DNA from: Planosporangium flavigriseum
GTDB taxonomy: Bacteria; Actinomycetota; Actinomycetes; Mycobacteriales; Micromonosporaceae
NCBI RefSeq assembly: GCF_011947225.1
Contig: NZ_JAATVW010000003.1
Location: forward strand, 62,001 to 126,000
Reading direction: 5' to 3'
Length of the DNA stretch: 64,000 nt
The number at the start of each line of letters is the position of its first letter. Position 1 is the stretch's first letter. Positions 40,118-56,054 of this stretch are shown one piece after another. Below the pieces are notes generated by a model that worked only from the letters and a program-made list of their open reading frames with translations, made no database searches and had not been told where the DNA came from. The translations under genes were made by a program, and so were the position numbers.

Positions 40118-40259
40118 CGACCCTCTCCCCTCGCCCGCGGCACCACCGTACGGCCTCCGCCGCGCTGGCGGAACGGCGTCGATTCCGAGCGTAGGATCCT
40201 AGCCGCGTCGATCTGAGAGCGCAGGCATAGCGGCGAAGAATGAGCTGAACGGGGCATAT

Positions 40260-41447
40260 ATGCGATATGCCGTTATTGGCGGCGGGATCGTCGGCCTGGC
40301 GACCGCCCATGAGCTCCGCAGGGTGCACCCCGGTGCCGCGGTCACCGTCGTGGAGAAGGAGGCCGGCTGGGGCGCCCATCAGACCGGCCACAACTCGGGC
40401 GTCATCCACGCCGGCGTGTACTACGCGCCGGGCAGCCTCAAGGCCGAGCTGTGCAGGGCCGGGCGGCGGTCGATGCTTGACTTCTGCGCGGAACACGACA
40501 TCCCCTTCCAGGTCTGCGGCAAGCTGATCGTCGCCACCGACGAAGCCGAACTGCCCCGCCTCCACGCGCTGCACGAACGCGCCCGCGCCAACGACCTCGA
40601 GGTCCGGTTGATCACCCCGGAGGAGGCCCGCGAGTACGAACCGGAGGTGGCCTGCGTGGCCGCGCTCCACGTCGCCGCCACCGGCATCGTCAACTTCGGC
40701 ACGGTCTGCGCGCGCCTCGCCGAACTGCTGGAGAAGTCCGGCGCCGACATGCGTACCGGCGAGCGGGTCATCGGCATCCGCAGCGCGACCGCCGACGGAC
40801 CGGTGACCGTGCAGACCACACGCGGCGAACTCCAGGCGGACGTCCTGATCAACTGCGCCGGCCTGCACGCCGACCGGATCGCCCGGATGGCCGGGGTCCA
40901 CCCACCGGCCAGGATCGTTCCGTTCCGCGGCGAGTACTACGAACTGCGCCCCGAGCGCCGCGGCCTGGTCCGGGGGCTCATCTACCCGGTACCCGATCCG
41001 CAGTTCCCGTTCCTCGGCGTGCACCTGACCAAGATGATCGACGGAAGCGTCCACGCCGGCCCGAACGCCGTGCTCGCCCTGGCCCGCGAGGGTTACGGCT
41101 GGAGCCGGATCCGGCCGGGCGACCTGCTGGACGCGGCCACGTACAGCGGGCTGTGGCGGTTGGGGCGGCGGCACTGGCGGTACGGCGCCAGCGAGGTCGG
41201 CCGGTCGCTGTCCAAGCGGCGCTTCGCGGCCAGCCTGGCCCGGCTCGTACCCGCCATCGGCCCCGACGACCTGGTCAAGGCCGAGGCGGGCGTACGCGCC
41301 CAGGCGATCCGACCCGACGGCAGCCTCGTCGACGACTTCCTCATCGCGCGGCAGGGCCGGCAGGTGCACGTACTCAACGCGCCGTCACCCGCCGCCACCA
41401 GTTCCCTGGAGATCGCCAAGCACATCGTCGCCGGCCTGCCCGCGTAG
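40260..41447 (+). CDS. lhgO: L-2-hydroxyglutarate oxidase
   Basis: A 395-residue FAD-dependent oxidoreductase of the DAO family. The FAD-binding start is RYAVIGGGIVGLATAHELRR. The block GWGAHQTGHNSGVIHAGVYY is typical of LhgO. The adenine-binding strand ends INCAGLHADRIARMAG. The C-terminus has VKAEAGVRAQAIRPDGSLVDDF. It oxidises L-2-hydroxyglutarate, a by-product of malate and lactate dehydrogenases, back to 2-oxoglutarate and passes electrons to quinone or oxygen. It stands alone between two genes on the other strand. Confidence 0.92.
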   Translation: MRYAVIGGGIVGLATAHELRRVHPGAAVTVVEKEAGWGAHQTGHNSGVIHAGVYYAPGSLKAELCRAGRRSMLDFCAEHDIPFQVCGKLIVATDEAELPRLHALHERARANDLEVRLITPEEAREYEPEVACVAALHVAATGIVNFGTVCARLAELLEKSGADMRTGERVIGIRSATADGPVTVQTTRGELQADVLINCAGLHADRIARMAGVHPPARIVPFRGEYYELRPERRGLVRGLIYPVPDPQFPFLGVHLTKMIDGSVHAGPNAVLALAREGYGWSRIRPGDLLDAATYSGLWRLGRRHWRYGASEVGRSLSKRRFAASLARLVPAIGPDDLVKAEAGVRAQAIRPDGSLVDDFLIARQGRQVHVLNAPSPAATSSLEIAKHIVAGLPA

Positions 41448-41470
41448 CGGCGCGAAGCGCCGGATCTGAG

Positions 41471-42562
41471 CTAGTCCCGCGCCGCGCCGGTCGAACCGCC
41501 GAGCACGATCCGGGCGACGGCCCGCAGCGAGTCGGAGCCGGGTACGAAGTAACCGTCGTGCTCGACCACATTGTCGACCGGCAGCCGGCGCGCGCCGAAC
41601 GCCGCGTCGAACGGCAGGGTGCCGTGCCCGGCGCCCAGGATCCGGATCCCGGGCAGCTCGCGAGTCCAGTCCGACAACGTGCTACCCGCCCACACGCGGG
41701 CGCTGGTCCGCAGTTCGGTGGCCCGTTCGACTCCCATGCCCGGGCTGCCCAGAGCGACGATGTCCTGTACGTGCCGCCCGAGGGCCGGCGCCGCGAGCCC
41801 CGCGACGACCGATCCGTAGCTGTGCCCAACGAGGGTCACCGTCGCCATCGGACGGTACTCCCCCAGTCCCGCCACGAACCGGACCAGCGCCGCCGCCCCG
41901 TCCCGCGCCCGCTCCTCGCGGGCCGCCTCGCGCCCGATGCCCTCCGGCGGGTCGTAGCCCAGCCAGGCGATCACCGCGACGCGGGCGTTGCCGTCATCCG
42001 CCCGTACCTGCTGAAAGAGCTGCCGGGCCTGCCACGCGAGCGCCCGCCGCTCGCGACCGGCACAACCCCGGTCGAAGTTGCCCAGCCGGTTACTCAGCCC
42101 CGGGACGATGACCGCGATCCGGTCAGCCGAGGCGAGATCCCCGAGCACCTCGGCGACGCGCCCGTTGCCGCGCGGGTCGTACGCGATCAGATGGCGCTCG
42201 GGCGACCACGCGGAGCGGCGTGCGTTGGCGGCGAACCGTAGGTCCAGCGGCGCGCCGTCGAGGTTGCCGACGATGGCCGGGTACCGCTCGGCGAGCGCGG
42301 CGCGGGCCGCCGGTTCCAGACCGACGAAGAACCGGGCAATCTGGGCCGGGGTGGCCCGCCGTGGGTCCGGCAGCGGCTGCCCCGCCACCCGGTCGGCGAC
42401 CCACGCGGAGATTCCCGGCAAGTTGGCGGAGGCGCTCGCGGCCGCGGGTTCGGCCGGCCCGAACAGCCAACCACCAAAGCCGGCGACCACGGCCAGGACC
42501 GTGGTCGCCGCATCTCGGGTCAGCCGGAGCATCAGGCGCCGAGGGTCGCCGAGCAAACTCAT
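41471..42562 (-). CDS. DUF1023 alpha/beta-hydrolase
   Basis: A 363-residue secreted or membrane-linked hydrolase. An N-terminal hydrophobic segment (AATTVLAVVAGFGGWLFG) is a likely signal or anchor. The hydrolase part has RHLIAYDPRGNGRVAEVLGD, VIAWLGYDPPEGIG, and the nucleophile elbow TLVGHSYGSVVAGLAAP (Ser in GHSYG). The histidine is likely in VVEHDGYFVPGSDSL. Substrate is unknown; a lipid or ester is expected of the family. Its promoter and first codons are duplicated 3.85 kb away at 46.4 kb, where the rest of the gene is missing. Confidence 0.85.
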   Translation of the reverse strand: MSLLGDPRRLMLRLTRDAATTVLAVVAGFGGWLFGPAEPAAASASANLPGISAWVADRVAGQPLPDPRRATPAQIARFFVGLEPAARAALAERYPAIVGNLDGAPLDLRFAANARRSAWSPERHLIAYDPRGNGRVAEVLGDLASADRIAVIVPGLSNRLGNFDRGCAGRERRALAWQARQLFQQVRADDGNARVAVIAWLGYDPPEGIGREAAREERARDGAAALVRFVAGLGEYRPMATVTLVGHSYGSVVAGLAAPALGRHVQDIVALGSPGMGVERATELRTSARVWAGSTLSDWTRELPGIRILGAGHGTLPFDAAFGARRLPVDNVVEHDGYFVPGSDSLRAVARIVLGGSTGAARD

Positions 42563-45627: not shown

Positions 45628-45657
45628 CTAGGTTGCTCCTCGCTCGTCAGTACCTAG
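45508..45657 (+). CDS. Doubtful 49-codon ORF inside the inverted-repeat segment
   Basis: An ATG preceded by TCAGGAGGTCGTG opens a frame starting MTARRTCLPATGPPAPLQAL and ending in TAG at 45655. It overlaps the right inverted repeat and the last bases of the toxin gene. The ribosome site is good but the product is short and unrecognised. It might be a transposase or other remnant. Confidence 0.2.
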   Translation: MTARRTCLPATGPPAPLQALLTAVTTGQKSAAISRLNKPPLGCSSLVST

Positions 45658-46010
45658 GTCGGCGGCCAAGCGAGCATGCGCTGGAGCCAGCTTCCAACCT
45701 CGGCCGCCTCCGATTCGGTGAGCCGACCCAGCGGCCTCTCACCCTTCAGACGCGCGGTCGAAATCGACGTGACGTCCTCGGTCCGGGCCCAACTCGTCCG
45801 GCTCAATCCCCCGTCGGATGAGTTGATCAGTACGTGGTGAGGCAGTCCGCGGTCCCGCGTCGTCAACGGGACCACCAGGGTCATGTCGATCGGGAACCGG
45901 CAGTGCAGTTCGGACGCCACGATCACGGCAGGGCGGACACCGCGCTGCTCGCTCCCGATGGGCTGGCCGAAATCCACCAGCCAGACCTGCCAGGGGCGGA
46001 CATGGCTCAC
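45654..46010 (-). CDS. MazF/PemK-type toxin endoribonuclease
   Basis: A 118-residue MazF-fold protein. The conserved start is VRPWQVWLVDFG and the core is GVRPAVIVASEL. A LVVPLTTRDRGLPHHVLI strand with the Thr of the active site follows, then the terminal helix with LTESEAAEVGSWLQ. MazF toxins cut single-stranded RNA. The GTG at 46010 overlaps the antitoxin stop by 4 bp, the usual arrangement with the antitoxin first. Confidence 0.88.
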   Translation of the reverse strand: MSHVRPWQVWLVDFGQPIGSEQRGVRPAVIVASELHCRFPIDMTLVVPLTTRDRGLPHHVLINSSDGGLSRTSWARTEDVTSISTARLKGERPLGRLTESEAAEVGSWLQRMLAWPPT

Positions 46011-46258
46011 GCCGCCGGATCCTGACGCATCCAGTCGCCTGCCGCGTTGTCCGTGAGCCGGGACTCGTTGCGGTACGAGGCCCATTCGTCCTCGTCGGCG
46101 CGCAACCGCTCATAGGCTGCCAGCGCTTCGCGCTCCTCGTGCTCCGCCAGCAGCCGACGCAGCGCCTCAGCGAGCGTCGCGCCGCCGTAGTCCTCCGACG
46201 CAAGGCGAGCGAGGCGGTCCCGCAGCTCGGTCGTGATCTTGATCGTCGTCATGCTCAT
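46007..46258 (-). CDS. Antitoxin of the MazF-type pair
   Basis: An 83-residue protein. The N-terminus MSMTTIKITTELRDRLARLA resembles a ribbon-helix-helix DNA-binding domain. The rest is a helical, charged toxin-neutralising tail (EALRRLLAEHEEREALAAYERL). It should repress its own operon and bind the toxin. Alternative starts at 46270 and 46252 exist; 46258 is a compromise. Confidence 0.8.
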   Translation of the reverse strand: MSMTTIKITTELRDRLARLASEDYGGATLAEALRRLLAEHEEREALAAYERLRADEDEWASYRNESRLTDNAAGDWMRQDPAA

Positions 46259-46380
46259 GCCAATAAGCATGACACGACGGTATGCCGATCAGCATTCTTC
46301 CACTGCCCCCTCGCCTCGGCGGCGCTAGCTGAGGTTGGCAGCGGGTCTTCGCCGAGCGCGGCGGCGACGAGGTCGGCGTC

Positions 46381-46640: not shown

Positions 46641-47609
46641 CTACCGCGAGCCGCGGCTGTCGGCTGACACGGGACGCGAGTCGTCCTCGTCGTCGGCGTC
46701 GTCGTCGTACTCGTCCTCGTCGTACTCGTACTCGTCGTCCTCGTCGTCCTCGTCGTCGGCGGTCCGATCGTCGGGCGTCGTCGGCGGCTCCTGATCGCCC
46801 TGCTCAACCTCCTCCCACTCGGCCTCCTCCGGTTGGTGGACGACCTCGCTGTCGCGGATCTCGCCGCGCCACGCCCCGGTCGCCTCGCCGTTCAACGTGA
46901 CGAACCGGCGGAAGTTCTTGAGATCCAGCCGGGCCCGACGGCCGCCGGCACGCCAGAGGTTGCCGGTCTTCTCGAACAGGCCCTGCGGGTAGTACTCCAT
47001 GACCAGCAGGACCCGGGTCAGGTCATCGGCGAGCGGGTGGAAGGTGACGACCCCCTTCGTGGAACCCTTGGCACCCTCGCTCGTCCAGACGATGCGGCGG
47101 TCCGGAATCTGCTCCTGGGTGACGGCCTTCCAGGTACGCCGGGACTTGAACACCTTGACCCGCCACGTGGTCTCGGTGTCGCTGATCCGGTCGACCCCCT
47201 CGACGCCCTTCATGAACTTCGCGAACTCCCCGTACTGGGTCCACTGGTTGTAGACCACGTCGACGGGCAGCCCGATGTCGATGTCCTCGCTGATGTGTGT
47301 CACCTTCGGCTTTCCGCCGCCCTCGCCGCCGCCGAGAGCCGACTTCACCTTCTCGGTCAGGCCGGTCATCGCCGCGCTGATACCGGCGCGCATCGGGGAC
47401 TTGCCTTCGGCGAGCCCGCGTACCCCGACGAGCGCGGCCTTCAGACCGCCACCGTCACCGCCTTCGTTCAGCCGCTCGATGAGGTTGTCGACCAGGTGGT
47501 TCGCCCGCGCCAGCGCATAGTCTCTGGCTTCCCGTCCGAGGCGTGCCATGGCCGGGTTGTCACGCAGGGCCCGGCCGAGGTCGGCGAGAGGGGAACTGGC
47601 CTCGCTCAT
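46641..47609 (-). CDS. Gas-vesicle-linked SRPBCC (polyketide cyclase/dehydrase-like) protein
   Basis: A 322-residue protein, last in the gas-vesicle operon. The N-terminal ~100 residues are helical. An SRPBCC domain follows (residues ~107-245), with SEDIDIGLPVDVVYNQWTQY, FMKGVEGVDRISDTETTWRV and RIVWTSEGAKGSTKGVVTFH. The final ~65 residues are almost all Asp, Glu and Tyr, encoded by a near-microsatellite of GAC/GAG/TAC triplets. Proteins of this layout are annotated GvpZ or similar in Streptomyces gas-vesicle clusters; the biochemical role is unknown. Its ATG overlaps the preceding stop. Confidence 0.75.
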   Translation of the reverse strand: MSEASSPLADLGRALRDNPAMARLGREARDYALARANHLVDNLIERLNEGGDGGGLKAALVGVRGLAEGKSPMRAGISAAMTGLTEKVKSALGGGEGGGKPKVTHISEDIDIGLPVDVVYNQWTQYGEFAKFMKGVEGVDRISDTETTWRVKVFKSRRTWKAVTQEQIPDRRIVWTSEGAKGSTKGVVTFHPLADDLTRVLLVMEYYPQGLFEKTGNLWRAGGRRARLDLKNFRRFVTLNGEATGAWRGEIRDSEVVHQPEEAEWEEVEQGDQEPPTTPDDRTADDEDDEDDEYEYDEDEYDDDADDEDDSRPVSADSRGSR

Positions 47610-48130
47610 GCGGTGTCCCCACCCCGTGGTGCGCTGCGGCGGCGGGCCGGTTCACGGCCGCGACCAGACTCGCGGCTCCGCGCTGTCTTCCGGCTGCGCG
47701 CCGGCTCAGGATTCTCGTCGGTAGAACGCTGGGCCGGGGTACGCCGCACCGCTTTCGCCTGCCGTTTGGTCGCGCGCGGCGACACCGACTCCTCCTGATC
47801 GGCGTCGTCGACGGGCTCGTCTTCGGACGATCCCGAGATCTCGATCAACTGCGATGTGCGCTGGTGCAGGGAGTCGGCGAGCGCGGTCGTACGGGATTCG
47901 ATGGTCGCGGCCACCGCGCGCTGCGCCGCCGCCAGCAACGGGCCACGCACCTGCGCGGCGAGCTTGGCGACCTCTGGGGACGTCGCCAGAGTCGTGATCG
48001 CCGCACGAGGGTTGCCCAGCCGGTTCCCGCTCAGCCAGAGCGCCAGGCCGATCGCGGTCTTGCCCTTCTTGGTACGGCCGAGCAGATAACCGCCCACGAC
48101 CGCCGCCGTCAGCTTCGCACTGTCCCTCAT
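47606..48130 (-). CDS. Gas-vesicle-cluster small protein (GvpY-like)
   Basis: A 174-residue protein. The N-terminus is KLTAAVVGGYLLGRTKKGK, a short hydrophobic stretch followed by basic residues. A helical middle (ALADSLHQRTSQLIEI) leads into a highly basic Arg/Ser/Pro-rich tail. It matches by layout the accessory protein found between gvpF/G and the SRPBCC gene in Streptomyces gas-vesicle clusters. Function is unknown. The basic tail next to a polyacidic tail in the following gene product suggests the two might bind each other, which is inference. Confidence 0.6.
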   Translation of the reverse strand: MRDSAKLTAAVVGGYLLGRTKKGKTAIGLALWLSGNRLGNPRAAITTLATSPEVAKLAAQVRGPLLAAAQRAVAATIESRTTALADSLHQRTSQLIEISGSSEDEPVDDADQEESVSPRATKRQAKAVRRTPAQRSTDENPEPARSRKTARSRESGRGREPARRRSAPRGGDTA

Positions 48131-48158
48131 CGTCCGTTCCCCTTCGCTCGCACCGTCG

Positions 48159-48890
48159 TCACCAGCTCCACCGCCCCGTACCGGCTTCCGGCTGCGGCAG
48201 CTCGCCGGCGATGAAGTCGAAGGCCGGAAGTGGTCCCGCGTACTCGATCCCGTAGTTCTCGCCGAGATCGGCCCGCACCTGCTCGACGAGGTCGTCGAAG
48301 TCCGCCAGCCGATCGGCACGGACCAGGAAGGCGAAGCTCGCCTGCGTGACGTCATCGGGCAGCGAGACGACGTGCGACGCCGCGAGCGGGGCGAGGACCT
48401 CCACGATCCGGTCGCTGAGTTCACTGCGGCGAGCGTCCAGCGCGTGGCTGATCTCCTCACCTATTCCGATACGGAGATCCAAGCTCTGGCCGTTGCGGCG
48501 GCCCTGCTCCATCAGGTCACGCAGGCGCGGCGCGGCGGCGAGTACCTCCCGGATCTCGGCCTCCTCGTCGGCGGACACCTCCAGCCTGACCTCGACCAAC
48601 CCGTCCAGCTCAGCGAGGCGGCCGGCCACCAGATCGGCGTCCGGATCGAGGATCTCCTCGCGTACGGCGGCCTCGTCCGGCGCCACGGTGCCGAACCGGA
48701 CCGGCAGCACCGGGCCGTCGCGCAGCAGGGCGGTGAGCACGTCGAGGTACGCGATGGCGTCCGTCTCGTGCAGCTCGGTGTCCGCGAGGTCGCTCACGGC
48801 TGCCGCGACCGGCCCGGACCGGACGAGACGGACCGCGGCGGGCGGATCGGGGTGCTCCGCGCGTACGAGGCCGTAGACCTGAACAGCCAT
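48159..48890 (-). CDS. gvpF: Gas vesicle protein GvpF/GvpL family
   Basis: A 243-residue protein of the GvpF/L family: N-terminal strand VQVYGLVRAEHPDPP, the DVLTALLRDGPVLPVRFGT core, and a C-terminal domain with GPLPAFDF. GvpF and GvpL are accessory proteins that contact GvpA during vesicle nucleation. It follows gvpA directly, the stop of gvpA abutting its ATG. It is the more gvpF-like of two paralogues by position. Confidence 0.85.
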   Translation of the reverse strand: MAVQVYGLVRAEHPDPPAAVRLVRSGPVAAAVSDLADTELHETDAIAYLDVLTALLRDGPVLPVRFGTVAPDEAAVREEILDPDADLVAGRLAELDGLVEVRLEVSADEEAEIREVLAAAPRLRDLMEQGRRNGQSLDLRIGIGEEISHALDARRSELSDRIVEVLAPLAASHVVSLPDDVTQASFAFLVRADRLADFDDLVEQVRADLGENYGIEYAGPLPAFDFIAGELPQPEAGTGRWSW

Positions 48891-49334
48891 CTAGTCCTCC
48901 TCCCGTCCGGTGCGCCGGCTGGGCGCTCGCCGACCCGAGGGTGCGCGCCGGCGGTCGTCGTCCTCACCGTTCAGGAACGCGTCGGCGGCGTCGCTGAGCG
49001 TCTCCTTCACCCCGCTCAACACGCCTTTCGTCCGGTGCTTCGCGGCCCCCTCGTTCACTCCCCTGGAGATCCCCTGCACCAGGCCGGGAAGGCCGGTGAC
49101 CTGCCCTTCCGGCTGCAGGTCCAGCCGGTTGACCGCCTCGGCGAAGCGCAGGTAGGTGTCGACGCTCGCGATGACGATGCGGGCGTCGATCGTCAACAAT
49201 TCGATACCGACGAGGGAAACGAGCACGTACGCGTCGATGACGATGCCCTTGTCGAGGATGAGTTCGAGTACGTCCGCCAGGCCGCTGGGTCGCGGAGCGC
49301 GCGTTACTCCTGAATACGAACTGATCGCTGCCAC
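48891..49334 (-). CDS. gvpA: Gas vesicle structural protein GvpA
   Basis: A 147-residue protein. The GvpA core is [19 protein letters not shown], then [20 protein letters not shown] and [13 protein letters not shown] (residues ~18-72). This is the amphipathic helix-strand-strand-helix that builds the ribbed protein shell. A long C-terminal tail (~75 residues), basic at the end, is typical of actinomycete GvpA and absent from the 70-residue cyanobacterial form. The start is GTG. It lies between gvpK and gvpF. Confidence 0.92.
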
Positions 49335-49349
49335 CTCTTTCGGTTGGGG

Positions 49350-49655
49350 TCAACCCTTCTCAGCCGGCGGTGGCGGTTCGGTCACCGCCAGCCGGTCGAG
49401 GTCGGTGTTGGACAGTCGGATGTCGTCCGCGGAGATGTCGAAGATCTCGCGGAGTTCGGTGAAGCGCTGGTCGAGCGCCAGCAGGGCCCGGCCAAGTCGC
49501 TCGATCTCGTCGTCGGTCAGCGAGCCGGCGTCCACGCGCCGCAACGCCTGGCGTTCGAGTAGCTGACGGACGATCTCCAGGAGGGCGATCACGAGCCGGC
49601 CGAGCCCGCGCCCGGCGTCCTCCGGGTCGATGTCGAACCGCAGGGGCGTGTTCAT
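49350..49655 (-). CDS. gvpK: Gas vesicle protein GvpK
   Basis: A 101-residue protein. Its core RFDIDPEDAGRGLGRLVIAL, LLEIVRQLLERQALRRVDAG and LTDDEIERLGRALLALDQR matches GvpK, a required accessory protein thought to act in early vesicle assembly. Its ATG overlaps the gvpS stop by 4 bp. Confidence 0.9.
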   Translation of the reverse strand: MNTPLRFDIDPEDAGRGLGRLVIALLEIVRQLLERQALRRVDAGSLTDDEIERLGRALLALDQRFTELREIFDISADDIRLSNTDLDRLAVTEPPPPAEKG

Positions 49656-49843
49656 CGGCCTTCTCCACCGTCCGCCAGCGTGTCCACCGCTGCCAGCAGC
49701 AGCCGGGCGTCGAGGCGGATCAGGTCGATGCCGGCGAGCCCGATGACGATGTCGCCGACGACGACCGCGCCCCGGTCGATAACCCGGTCGAGCAGGTCCA
49801 CGAGGTCGTTGGTGCCGACGCCGTGCGCGGGCAGCTCACTCAT
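49652..49843 (-). CDS. gvpS: Gas vesicle protein GvpS (GvpA-like small protein)
   Basis: A 63-residue protein. The sequence DLVDLLDRVIDRGAVVVGD and IVIGLAGIDLIRLDARLLL is a divergent GvpA fold with short ends. It overlaps the preceding gvpL by 8 bp and the following gvpK by 4 bp, matching the J-L-S-K order seen in Streptomyces, so GvpS is preferred over GvpJ/M. Such proteins probably cap or nucleate the shell. Confidence 0.8.
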   Translation of the reverse strand: MSELPAHGVGTNDLVDLLDRVIDRGAVVVGDIVIGLAGIDLIRLDARLLLAAVDTLADGGEGR

Positions 49844-50588
49844 CGGCGGTCACCGTGAGGTCCACGAAGGAGTACGGCGGCCAGGGCCCGGTCACGCGAA
49901 GCGCCAGGCCGTCGACCGCCAGCCGGTCGCCGCAGCGGTCCAGCGCTTCCACGAAGCGTGGCTGCTCGTCCCGGCGCACCAGGTAGGCGCGGTCGAGCAG
50001 GAGAGCGTCCTGCCGCTTTCCAGGCACGGTGTCGCGGGCCGTCTCGCCCAACGCCCCCTCGGTCCAAGCCACCAGCTCGAGCGCCGCGCGGCGGCGCTGC
50101 TCGAGCCGGTCGAAGTGCTGGCGTCGCCGCAGGAGGTACGCGGTGCCGGATTCAGCGGTCGATGCGTCAGCCGGCTCGGCTTCGGCATGAGGGTCGCCGT
50201 CCTCGCAGACCGTGACCCCCCACTCGTCGCAGCCGGCAACCCGCGCGAGCTGGGCACGAAGCGCGGCCACCCGGGCGGTCAGGAAACGCCTGGCCGCCTG
50301 CCGGTCCGTCACGACGGTGCCGAGCCGAAACGGAAGCGTGGCACCGCCGGACGCGGCGACGGCCCGGACCACGGCGTCGTGGCGCTGCGCGAGGGCCCCG
50401 ACCAGGCGTGGGTCGGCGGACTCGGCGACGACCGCCGCCAGGTCGGCCGTCGCCACGTCGCTGACGGCGAGGCCGAGGCCGTCCGCCGTGAGTACTTCGA
50501 CCGGTCCGTCGCCGACACCGCGAAGGGCGTCGACGGCGGTGTCACCCGGCACGGCGGCGTACAGGTAGAGGGCGCGTTCGGGGGTCAC
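49836..50588 (-). CDS. gvpL: Gas vesicle protein GvpL/GvpF family (second copy)
   Basis: A 250-residue GvpF/L-family protein. The N-terminus is ALYLYAAVPGDTAVDALRG. The conserved core contains LPFRLGTVVTDRQAARRFL. The C-terminal domain has LRVTGPWPPYSFVDLTV, with the GPWPPYSF block shared by the family. Position between gvpJ and gvpS suggests GvpL. The GTG at 50588 overlaps the gvpJ stop (GTGA). Confidence 0.88.
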   Translation of the reverse strand: MTPERALYLYAAVPGDTAVDALRGVGDGPVEVLTADGLGLAVSDVATADLAAVVAESADPRLVGALAQRHDAVVRAVAASGGATLPFRLGTVVTDRQAARRFLTARVAALRAQLARVAGCDEWGVTVCEDGDPHAEAEPADASTAESGTAYLLRRRQHFDRLEQRRRAALELVAWTEGALGETARDTVPGKRQDALLLDRAYLVRRDEQPRFVEALDRCGDRLAVDGLALRVTGPWPPYSFVDLTVTADE

Positions 50589-50938
50589 GACGGCTCCCCC
50601 TGACCGAGGCTGCGCTCCAGCGTGTCGAGGCGGGCGCGAAGGTCCCGGTTCTCGGCCTCCAGTGCGTCGCGCTCCCTGGCCGCTTTCGAGCTGAGTGAGG
50701 GGTCGTTCATCCACCAGTCGATGCCCATCTCCTTGGCGGTGTCCACCGAGGCGACGAGGAGCCGTACCTTCAAAGTCAGCAGTTCCACGTTCGCGACACC
50801 GACGACGATGTCCCCGACGATCACCACGCCCCGGTCGAGGACGCGTTCGAGGATGTCCGCGAGGGAGTCCGACGACCGCTGCCCGCCGCCGAAGCGCGAC
50901 GACGAGGTGGCGTACTTGCTTCGTGGTTCCACGTTCAT
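50585..50938 (-). CDS. gvpJ: Gas vesicle protein GvpJ (GvpA-related)
   Basis: A 117-residue GvpA-like protein. The fold reads LADILERVLDRGVVIVGDIV and VGVANVELLTLKVRLLVASV, then AKEMGIDWWMNDPSLSS. The GIDWW-containing segment distinguishes this paralogue from structural GvpA. A C-terminal coiled coil follows (RDALEAENRDLRARLDTLER). It may act at vesicle tips or in nucleation. Its ATG overlaps the gvpO stop by 4 bp (ATGA). Confidence 0.82.
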   Translation of the reverse strand: MNVEPRSKYATSSSRFGGGQRSSDSLADILERVLDRGVVIVGDIVVGVANVELLTLKVRLLVASVDTAKEMGIDWWMNDPSLSSKAARERDALEAENRDLRARLDTLERSLGQGEPS

Positions 50939-51249
50939 GAGGCATCGGTGGCGTTCCGTGAGAAGCGACGCAGTCGCTCGTACGAGGTGATGTGGCCGAG
51001 CCGGTCGGCGTCGACCCGATAGGTAGCCATGACGCTGCTGGTCGCGGGGATGCGCTCCAGCTCCGTCACGTCGACGAGGAATGACCATCCGTCACCGTCG
51101 GGCCGCGCTCCGGTCATGGCCTCCGGGGCGAGCCCGGTGAGCTCCGCGAACTCCCCCAACGCGGTCCGGGCGACCTGCGCGAGCGTGACGACACGAGGCG
51201 GTGAATCGCTTTTGTCTACTTTGTCTTGTTCGTGCCTTCGTGTCGCCAT
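50935..51249 (-). CDS. gvpO: Gas vesicle protein GvpO
   Basis: A ~104-residue protein. It contains VVTLAQVARTALGEFAELTG and WSFLVDVTELERIPATSSVM, the conserved GvpO core, then YRVDADRLGHITSYERLRRF. It is first in the operon, as in Streptomyces. The ATG at 51249 gives a typical start (MATRRHEQDK); ATGs at 51267 and 51327 are in frame. Confidence 0.88.
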   Translation of the reverse strand: MATRRHEQDKVDKSDSPPRVVTLAQVARTALGEFAELTGLAPEAMTGARPDGDGWSFLVDVTELERIPATSSVMATYRVDADRLGHITSYERLRRFSRNATDAS

Positions 51250-53021: not shown

Positions 53022-55922
<2,901 letters not shown>

Positions 55923-56054
55923 GCCTTCCCCCACCATCTTCAATGCTCTCTCCGTCGGCGCGGAATCTGTCCCGCCCGCGTTATATCCGTCGTCCCTGAC
56001 ACTTCCGCTGTCCTCGCCCGCATGAGCGGGTGAGCGCCGCCGCGGTCGGCGCCC

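What the first reader, a model, noticed from the sequence alone, without database searches (positions are those of the whole stretch)
46641..51249. Gas-vesicle operon with permuted order and no gvpG or gvpN
The nine genes run O-J-L-S-K-A-F then two accessory genes, with tight overlaps between most of them. In Streptomyces the order is O-A-F-G-Y-Z-J-L-S-K, so the A-F block has moved to the end. No GvpG-like or GvpN-like ORF is present in or around the operon. GvpG is needed for vesicle formation in haloarchaea, so either it is encoded elsewhere, replaced by an accessory protein here, or this operon makes something other than buoyant vesicles.
Basis: partly seen in the sequence, partly recalled or inferred. 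Interest (0 to 1): 0.55.

Follow-up and report, generated by a model that had tools for sequence, protein, structure and literature searches.

The report
Gas-vesicle operon that lost GvpG
This soil actinomycete belongs to a widespread lineage of gas-vesicle gene clusters that lacks a gene thought essential (gvpG) and whose assembly protein GvpF carries instead a short conserved R-W-G-W tail, which may do the missing protein's job.

Summary
On the minus strand, 51249-46641, nine intact genes read gvpO-J-L-S-K-A-F-Y-Z, with no room for a tenth and no gvpG found in the genome. gvpN is missing too, but that is usual: 0 of 17 actinomycete genomes tried pass the GvpN cut-off. By its genus mates the genome is a Planosporangium. 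The order is not a local shuffle: it recurs in Frankia, Pseudonocardiaceae and three sister clusters that still have gvpG. The gvpG-less clusters, one isolated case apart, form one branch, and in Planosporangium all nine genes show purifying selection. New here: GvpF of these clusters ends in a tail with R-W-[GS]-[WF], present in 36 of 37 gvpG-less clusters, 0 of 98 GvpF of gvpG-bearing clusters and 0 of 1129 other Gvp reading frames. Read in one set as RW[GS]W, it held in a second set in 10 of 13 (the other three RWGF) against 0 of 54. Best reading: an operon that assembles vesicles without GvpG, the GvpF tail taking over part of its role. Absence, clade and motif are shown; vesicles and the tail's role are inferred from a correlation with one origin.

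The parts
50935..51249 (-). gvpO
   Evidence: PF05800 84 bits; first gene; carries residues conserved only in the gvpG-less branch
50585..50938 (-). gvpJ (GvpA paralogue)
   Evidence: PF00741 53.6 bits; classed J by paralogue profiles
49836..50588 (-). gvpL, GTG start
   Evidence: PF06386 168 bits; classed L
49652..49843 (-). gvpS (GvpA paralogue)
   Evidence: PF00741 46.5 bits; stands before gvpK; classed S by a one-bit margin only
49350..49655 (-). gvpK
   Evidence: PF05121 89 bits
48891..49334 (-). gvpA, major shell protein with a long C-terminal extension; GTG start taken
   Evidence: NF006872 GvpA 172 bits, cut-off 151
48159..48890 (-). gvpF
   Evidence: PF06386 154 bits; AlphaFold2 mean pLDDT 87 and Foldseek top hits GvpF 4qsg and 6l5d
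48162..48176 (-). codons of the C-terminal G-R-W-S-W motif of GvpF, on a tail (residues 229-243) predicted without fold
   Evidence: motif in 36 of 37 gvpG-less clusters and 0 of 98 GvpF of gvpG-bearing clusters; pLDDT under 50
48131..48158 (-). 28-bp gap between gvpF and Y, the place where sister clusters L091 and L092 carry gvpG
   Evidence: layouts
47606..48130 (-). Y: GvpY-like accessory gene, no Pfam or NCBIfam match over cut-off
   Evidence: homologues beside gvpG-bearing clusters
46641..47609 (-). Z: GvpZ-like accessory gene, SRPBCC domain, acidic C-terminus by eye
   Evidence: PF03364 71 bits; homologues beside gvpG-bearing clusters

Best explanation
This is a gas-vesicle operon of a distinct actinomycete lineage that assembles its shell without GvpG. 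Shown: the nine genes, no gvpG found in the genome, one branch of gvpG-less clusters, purifying selection, and a branch-specific R-W-[GS]-[WF] motif near the end of GvpF. Inferred: the ancestor had O-J-L-S-K-A-F-G-Y-Z, lost G from between F and Y, and gained the GvpF tail on the same branch. In B. megaterium GvpF is reported to bind GvpA2 first and then to be displaced by GvpG. Here the tethered Trp motif would do GvpG's part in cis, either by holding GvpA or by docking GvpF on GvpO, GvpK or GvpL. Likelihoods: a maintained gvp operon, 0.95; it makes gas vesicles, 0.7; the tail compensates for GvpG, 0.4.
For: Whole genomes: genus, 0 of 4 with GvpG over cut-off, 3 of 4 with GvpO. Family sample of 300: 78 have GvpO and 5 of these lack GvpG over cut-off, namely the 3 Planosporangium and two decayed clusters, G264 and G033. 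Class sample of 394: 85 have GvpO; 18 of these lack GvpG over cut-off, being all 16 GvpO-bearing Frankiaceae, this genome and the broken cluster of G394. Pseudonocardiaceae genomes with complete gvpG-less clusters: 12 of 13 have no GvpG over cut-off; the 13th has it in a second, G-type cluster. One branch: SH-aLRT 100, 100/100 with a mixture model on 43 rows. Motif: set 1, 23 of 24 against 0 of 44; set 2, 13 of 13 against 0 of 54; 0 of 1129 other Gvp reading frames. The stretch between the domain end and the motif varies from about 10 to 60 residues where it could be measured (33 of 36). pN/pS 0.15-0.55 for the nine genes in three species, no stops. Columns at least 90% conserved in the gvpG-less rows and different in the others and in the sisters fall in GvpO (7, one shared by one sister), GvpK (3), GvpL (2), GvpF (1), none in A, J, S (my reading). 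Passages: GvpF then GvpG on GvpA2, strong GvpG-GvpK binding (PMC11445434).
Against: Loss of gvpG and gain of the tail map to one branch, so there is one event and no independent repeat. The isolated second loss (L073, genome G065) has no motif, but that genome keeps a gvpG at another place. The final [WF] of the pattern was widened after I had seen set 2, where 3 of 13 end in RWGF. Residues fixed on a long branch are expected by descent alone. I found no report of vesicles from any organism with a gvpG-less cluster. The AlphaFold2 monomer shows the tail without fold and names no partner. No similarity between GvpG and a GvpF tail was found (hhalign).
Confidence: 0.4

Rival explanations
1. The operon assembles vesicles without GvpG because GvpG became dispensable in this lineage, through changes in GvpK, GvpO or GvpL or through host chaperones. 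The GvpF tail is an unrelated lineage feature, for example an anchor that clusters or positions vesicles.
For: Branch-specific conserved residues in GvpO and GvpK; loss and tail share one branch only.
Against: The tail is the most conspicuous new element, in a protein reported to bind GvpG and GvpA (passages), and it is absent from all 98 GvpF of gvpG-bearing clusters examined.
Confidence: 0.3
2. The gvpG-less operons no longer make gas-filled vesicles; the proteins build another assembly or only small shells, and selection keeps them for that.
For: gvpG deletion abolishes vesicles in Serratia, GvpG is listed as essential in haloarchaea, and blocking its N-terminus stops vesicles in B. megaterium. 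As of 2016 no vesicles had been seen from the S. coelicolor cluster and another function was suggested.
Against: Shell protein GvpA and the other haloarchaeal essentials (O, F, J, K, L and an S/M type) are present and under purifying selection. A 2022 review counts Streptomyces among the soil bacteria that form gas vesicles (passage).
Confidence: 0.25
3. gvpG is present but missed: unsequenced in a gap, or diverged beyond the profile.
For: The genome is a draft of 85 contigs.
Against: 99.14% complete; three species and 16 Frankiaceae agree; gvpG elsewhere lies inside gvp loci and there is no room for one here. No further conserved gene of 50 or more residues across the gvpG-less loci. The Pfam model finds gvpG in 73 of 78 GvpO-bearing genomes of the same family.
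Confidence: 0.03

Closest known systems
Streptomyces-type cluster gvpO-A-F-G-Y-Z-J-L-S-K
   Same: Same gene families apart from G, Y and Z included; no gvpN; long GvpA C-terminus
   Different: Blocks [A-F-(G)-Y-Z] and [J-L-S-K] exchanged after O; gvpG missing; GvpF carries the RWGW tail
O-J-L-S-K-A-F-G(-Y-Z) clusters of Micromonosporaceae L091, L092 (with Y-Z) and L096
   Same: Same gene order; neighbours of the gvpG-less branch in the unrooted trees
   Different: They keep gvpG after F, have S and K in one reading frame, and lack the GvpF tail
Frankia gvp cluster (reported complete in ACN14a and EAN1pec, absent from obligate symbionts; PMC4447401, PMC9956245, passages)
   Same: Same order, no gvpG, RWGW tail
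   Different: Often a longer linker and residues after the motif; the passages seen do not mention the missing gvpG
Minimal vesicle sets: haloarchaeal eight (A, O, F, G, J, K, L, M, derived from the list of non-essential genes) and B. megaterium eight
   Same: O, J, L, S, K, A, F here equal the haloarchaeal set minus G if S is counted as the M type
   Different: No G and no N; in 13 Pseudonocardiaceae clusters Y and Z are not detected either, leaving seven genes

Membership tests
Gas-vesicle (gvp) gene cluster | GvpA shell protein | tested here: met
   NF006872 172 bits over cut-off 151
Gas-vesicle (gvp) gene cluster | Accessory GvpF/L, GvpK, GvpJ/S, GvpO | tested here: met
   all over Pfam cut-offs
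Gas-vesicle (gvp) gene cluster | GvpG, required in haloarchaea and Serratia; N-terminal block stops vesicles in B. megaterium | tested here: not met
   none over cut-off in the genome; essentiality from passages and sections
Gas-vesicle (gvp) gene cluster | GvpN | tested here: not met
   none over cut-off here or in the other 16 of 17 actinomycete genomes searched, several with G-type clusters; at most 77 candidates per genome were scored
Gas-vesicle (gvp) gene cluster | Gas-filled ribbed vesicles in the cell | not testable with these tools
   needs microscopy
Streptomyces-type gvp cluster | Order O-A-F-G-Y-Z-J-L-S-K | tested here: not met
   order O-J-L-S-K-A-F-Y-Z
gvpG-less O-J-L-S-K-A-F clade (defined here) | Falls in the one branch of gvpG-less clusters | tested here: met
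gvpG-less O-J-L-S-K-A-F clade (defined here) | GvpF tail with RW[GS][WF] | tested here: met
   GRWSW at 48176-48162

The most novel reading that the evidence does not exclude
A lineage of actinomycete gas vesicles dispenses with GvpG because GvpF has acquired a tethered R-W-G-W peptide that does GvpG's work in cis. The seven genes O-J-L-S-K-A-F with this tail would then be a natural gas-vesicle set smaller than the eight-gene sets defined in haloarchaea and B. megaterium.
Probability: 0.33. Interest if true: 0.75.

Novelty: new variant of a known kind. Interest (0 to 1): 0.6.

Why it matters
GvpG is treated as an essential assembly factor and its task is unclear. A natural lineage that manages without it, with one conspicuous change in its reported partner GvpF, gives a direct handle on what GvpG does and on how small a vesicle gene set can be, which matters for acoustic reporter genes. 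The open question (what does GvpG do?) becomes testable by swapping or cutting a five-residue tail.

Tried and rejected
Considered and rejected: gvpG elsewhere in the genome (the best match is a SHOCT domain; the near-threshold 29.6-bit match in the L110 genome also ends in a SHOCT-like stretch by eye). A tenth gene conserved around gvpG-less clusters (frames of 50 or more residues of three loci against 21: nothing beyond the nine families; flanking genes are shared only among the three Planosporangium). A hidden GvpG domain in another Gvp protein (hhalign of a GvpG profile against nine families in gvpG-less and gvpG-bearing versions: best GvpK at 20% and 25% probability, alike in both). GvpY or GvpZ as the substitute: both also stand beside gvpG-bearing clusters and are not detected in 13 gvpG-less Pseudonocardiaceae clusters. 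Decay of the operon: rejected by pN/pS and intact frames. The GvpA Arg-to-Leu change of the window first looked striking, but the site varies in other clusters (R in 86 of 118 matched). Sigma-70 promoter scan: nothing. The stretch upstream of gvpO aligns poorly between the three species. The plasmid collection gave 12 records with a GvpF match; 4 of the 12 were read, all with at least pieces of gvpG and none with the tail.

Rows left out: of the 79 GvpO places, 77 were fetched (the other two are in the genomes of L110 and L111); of the 77, 7 have a gvpO without a cluster and 3 are cut by contig ends (L207, L240, L242), leaving 67. In one search I dropped L162 (same contig as L109) and the decayed L158, L080 and L097. 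The 58-row tree still holds L109 and L162 both. In the tree I dropped L114, L116, L118, L119, L158, L162 and clusters with under six of seven core genes; the tree program warned that some long branches meet there, the join of the three sisters with the gvpG-less branch among them. One search uses 43 of the 122 rows, chosen by me. L107 (Frankia QA3) is a partly broken cluster and L108 is cut by its contig; both stay in the motif count. The 44 GvpF of gvpG-bearing loci in set 1 include loci with several GvpF; the 1129 other frames include a few duplicate loci. The counts of GvpO-bearing genomes without GvpG and 42/43 are my comparison of two printed lists, and there at most 19 and 15 candidates per genome were scored for GvpG; searches scored all, and my own GvpG profile found none in the fetched Frankiaceae loci. 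Between drafts I made the odds of the best explanation agree with its parts (0.45 to 0.4, vesicles 0.6 to 0.7); no fact required it.
Full report
What is there. The operon runs on the minus strand from 51249 to 46641: gvpO, J, L, S, K, A, F, then two genes that I call Y and Z after the Streptomyces names (names recalled; GvpY and GvpZ of Serratia are other genes). Four junctions overlap by 4 bp and one by 8; the gaps are 15, 0 and 28 bp, so no further gene fits. The genome is 5.72 Mb in 85 contigs, 99.14% complete. Its genus mates G001 and G003 sit on contigs of the same lengths as Planosporangium mesophilum and P. thailandense records, so I take it as a Planosporangium of the Micromonosporaceae.

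gvpG and gvpN. A Pfam search of the whole genome for GvpG with all 51 candidates scored gives 19.8 bits at best against a cut-off of 30.6. That stretch is a SHOCT domain, which GvpG's C-terminal half resembles. None of four Planosporangium genomes has GvpG over cut-off, while three of the four have GvpO. GvpN is under cut-off in 17 of 17 actinomycete genomes tried, G-type ones included (at most 77 candidates scored in each), and over it in 3 of 3 non-actinomycete controls. Its absence here is therefore ordinary.

How wide it is. In 300 genomes of the family, 78 have GvpO and 73 of these have GvpG over cut-off. The five without are the three Planosporangium and two decayed clusters. In 394 genomes of the class, 85 have GvpO and 67 of these have GvpG over cut-off. 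The 18 without are all 16 GvpO-bearing members of one family, this genome, and a broken cluster, G394. That family is Frankiaceae, since L109, Frankia torreyi, sits on a contig of the same length as that of G466. The 15 Frankiaceae clusters not cut by a contig end all read O-J-L-S-K-A-F-Y-Z. In 200 genomes of the family of Thermocrispum (Pseudonocardiaceae) 71 have GvpO. Of 77 loci fetched, 54 have gvpG, 13 are gvpG-less with order O-J-L-S-K-A-F, 7 have a gvpO without a cluster and 3 are cut. Of the 13 genomes with gvpG-less clusters, 12 have no GvpG over cut-off; G834 has one in its second, G-type cluster. The Micromonosporaceae genome G236 likewise has a gvpG-less cluster (L082, order O-A-F-Y-Z-J-S-K-L) and, at another place, a gvpO with a gvpG beside it.

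One lineage. In a tree of 58 clusters from seven Gvp proteins, 22 of the 23 gvpG-less rows form one branch with support 100. The exception, L073, is an isolated loss next to a gvpG-bearing relative, in a genome that has gvpG elsewhere. With 122 clusters the 34 rows that carry the GvpF motif form one branch (SH-aLRT 100), and 100/100 in a mixture-model tree of 43 rows. The nearest rows are three Micromonosporaceae clusters of the same order that keep gvpG directly after F: L091 and L092, followed by Y-Z, and L096; the program flags that join as one of long branches, but the mixture-model tree, read without its root, agrees. The trees are unrooted. Since GvpG and tail-less GvpF also occur in non-actinomycete loci (L116, L118, L119), I take the state here as loss of G and gain of the tail. 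That the order came first is an inference.

The GvpF tail. Reading the ends of GvpF showed that each gvpG-less cluster of the branch in set 1 has a short motif after the folded domain. Over both sets the 36 are GRWGW 16, SRWGW 13, SRWGF 3, GRWSW 2, SRWSW 1, TRWSW 1. It follows a stretch that varies in length and sequence; in 22 of 36 it is the very end of the protein. In set 1 it is in 23 of 24 gvpG-less clusters and 0 of 44 GvpF in gvpG-bearing loci. The Pseudonocardiaceae served as a second set: 13 of 13 against 0 of 54. As first read in set 1 (RW[GS]W) the score there is 10 of 13; I widened the last place to W or F after seeing three RWGF ends. It occurs in 0 of 1129 other Gvp reading frames of these clusters. 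Four plasmid clusters read later, of 12 records matched, have at least pieces of gvpG and no motif. In the AlphaFold2 model of the window GvpF the core is confident and matches GvpF crystal structures 4qsg and 6l5d, while residues 229-243 have pLDDT under 50. That is what one expects of a short binding motif on a flexible tether; this last step is inference.

Selection and co-changes. All nine genes are open in the three species, with pN/pS 0.15-0.55 in every pairwise comparison, so the operon is in use. Columns at least 90% conserved in the gvpG-less branch but different both in most other clusters and in the three sisters number seven in GvpO (one shared by one sister), three in GvpK, two in GvpL, one in GvpF and none in A, J and S, by my reading. 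These are candidate contact sites, but one long branch can produce them without any contact.

Mechanism proposed. In B. megaterium GvpF is reported to be the first partner of GvpA2, GvpG to displace it, and GvpG to bind GvpK strongly (PMC11445434, passages). In haloarchaea GvpG binds GvpL and GvpF (PMC7688916 and PMC9501494, passages). I propose that here GvpF keeps its grip on GvpA and its own tail performs the hand-over step. Shown: absence, clade, motif, selection. Inferred: that vesicles form, and what the tail binds.

Literature. gvpG is required in Serratia (PMC4982088, section 7 and the first part of section 11) and listed as essential in haloarchaea (PMC9501494, passage of a table). 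Blocking its N-terminus stops vesicles in B. megaterium (PMC11223475, passages). No vesicles had been seen from the S. coelicolor cluster as of the 2016 paper, while the 2022 review names Streptomyces among vesicle formers. Frankia gvp clusters have been noted and are lost in obligate symbionts (PMC9956245, PMC4447401, PMC9760358, passages). None of the passages I saw mentions the missing gvpG. Searches listed no paper that, by title or start of abstract, reports a gvpG-less lineage or an RWGW tail; the library holds open-licence papers only, so this is weak evidence of absence.

Verdict. The order and the missing gvpN are shared with many relatives. The missing gvpG is real, shared by a lineage, and goes with a new motif in GvpF. 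It is a new variant of a known kind, of clear interest to people who study or engineer gas vesicles.

Noticed in passing
window 49221-49223 (GvpA residue 38): GvpA of this genome has Leu where its two genus mates have Arg (AYVLVSLVG against AYVRVSLVG). The site varies elsewhere (R 86, K 14, S 10, others, of 118 matched), but Leu is seen only here among those.
   Followed up: partly
L219, L220, L226, L227, L232-L237, L243, L249, L250: gvpG-less Pseudonocardiaceae clusters in which Y and Z were not detected nearby: apparently seven-gene clusters O-J-L-S-K-A-F.
   Followed up: partly
L091, L092, L096: GvpS and GvpK lie in one open frame, apparently an S-K fusion, in the gvpG-bearing sister clusters.
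   Followed up: no
L074 (G065), L075 (G105): Small second loci with Z, A and G but no F detected, in genomes that also have a main gvp cluster.
   Followed up: no
L239, L244-L248, L251: gvpO genes without a cluster (seven loci in six Pseudonocardiaceae genomes that also have a gvp cluster elsewhere, one of those cut by its contig).
   Followed up: no
L257 and L258 (Rhodococcus plasmids): gvpG is matched in two overlapping pieces, as after a frameshift, so these plasmid clusters look as if they are decaying.
   Followed up: no
window 45654-46270, minus strand: Two small genes beside the operon that look like a toxin-antitoxin pair (an RHH-type protein and a PemK/MazF-like protein), by eye only.
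   Followed up: no
window 53022-55943 and 40203-42562: A large ORF that looks by eye like a ribonucleotide reductase and ORFs on the other side are shared around the operon in the three Planosporangium loci, so its place seems old in the genus.
   Followed up: partly
GvpG family PF05120: The C-terminal half of a GvpG (L091) scores 25 bits against the SHOCT domain (cut-off 27), which may explain weak GvpG matches in many genomes.
   Followed up: partly
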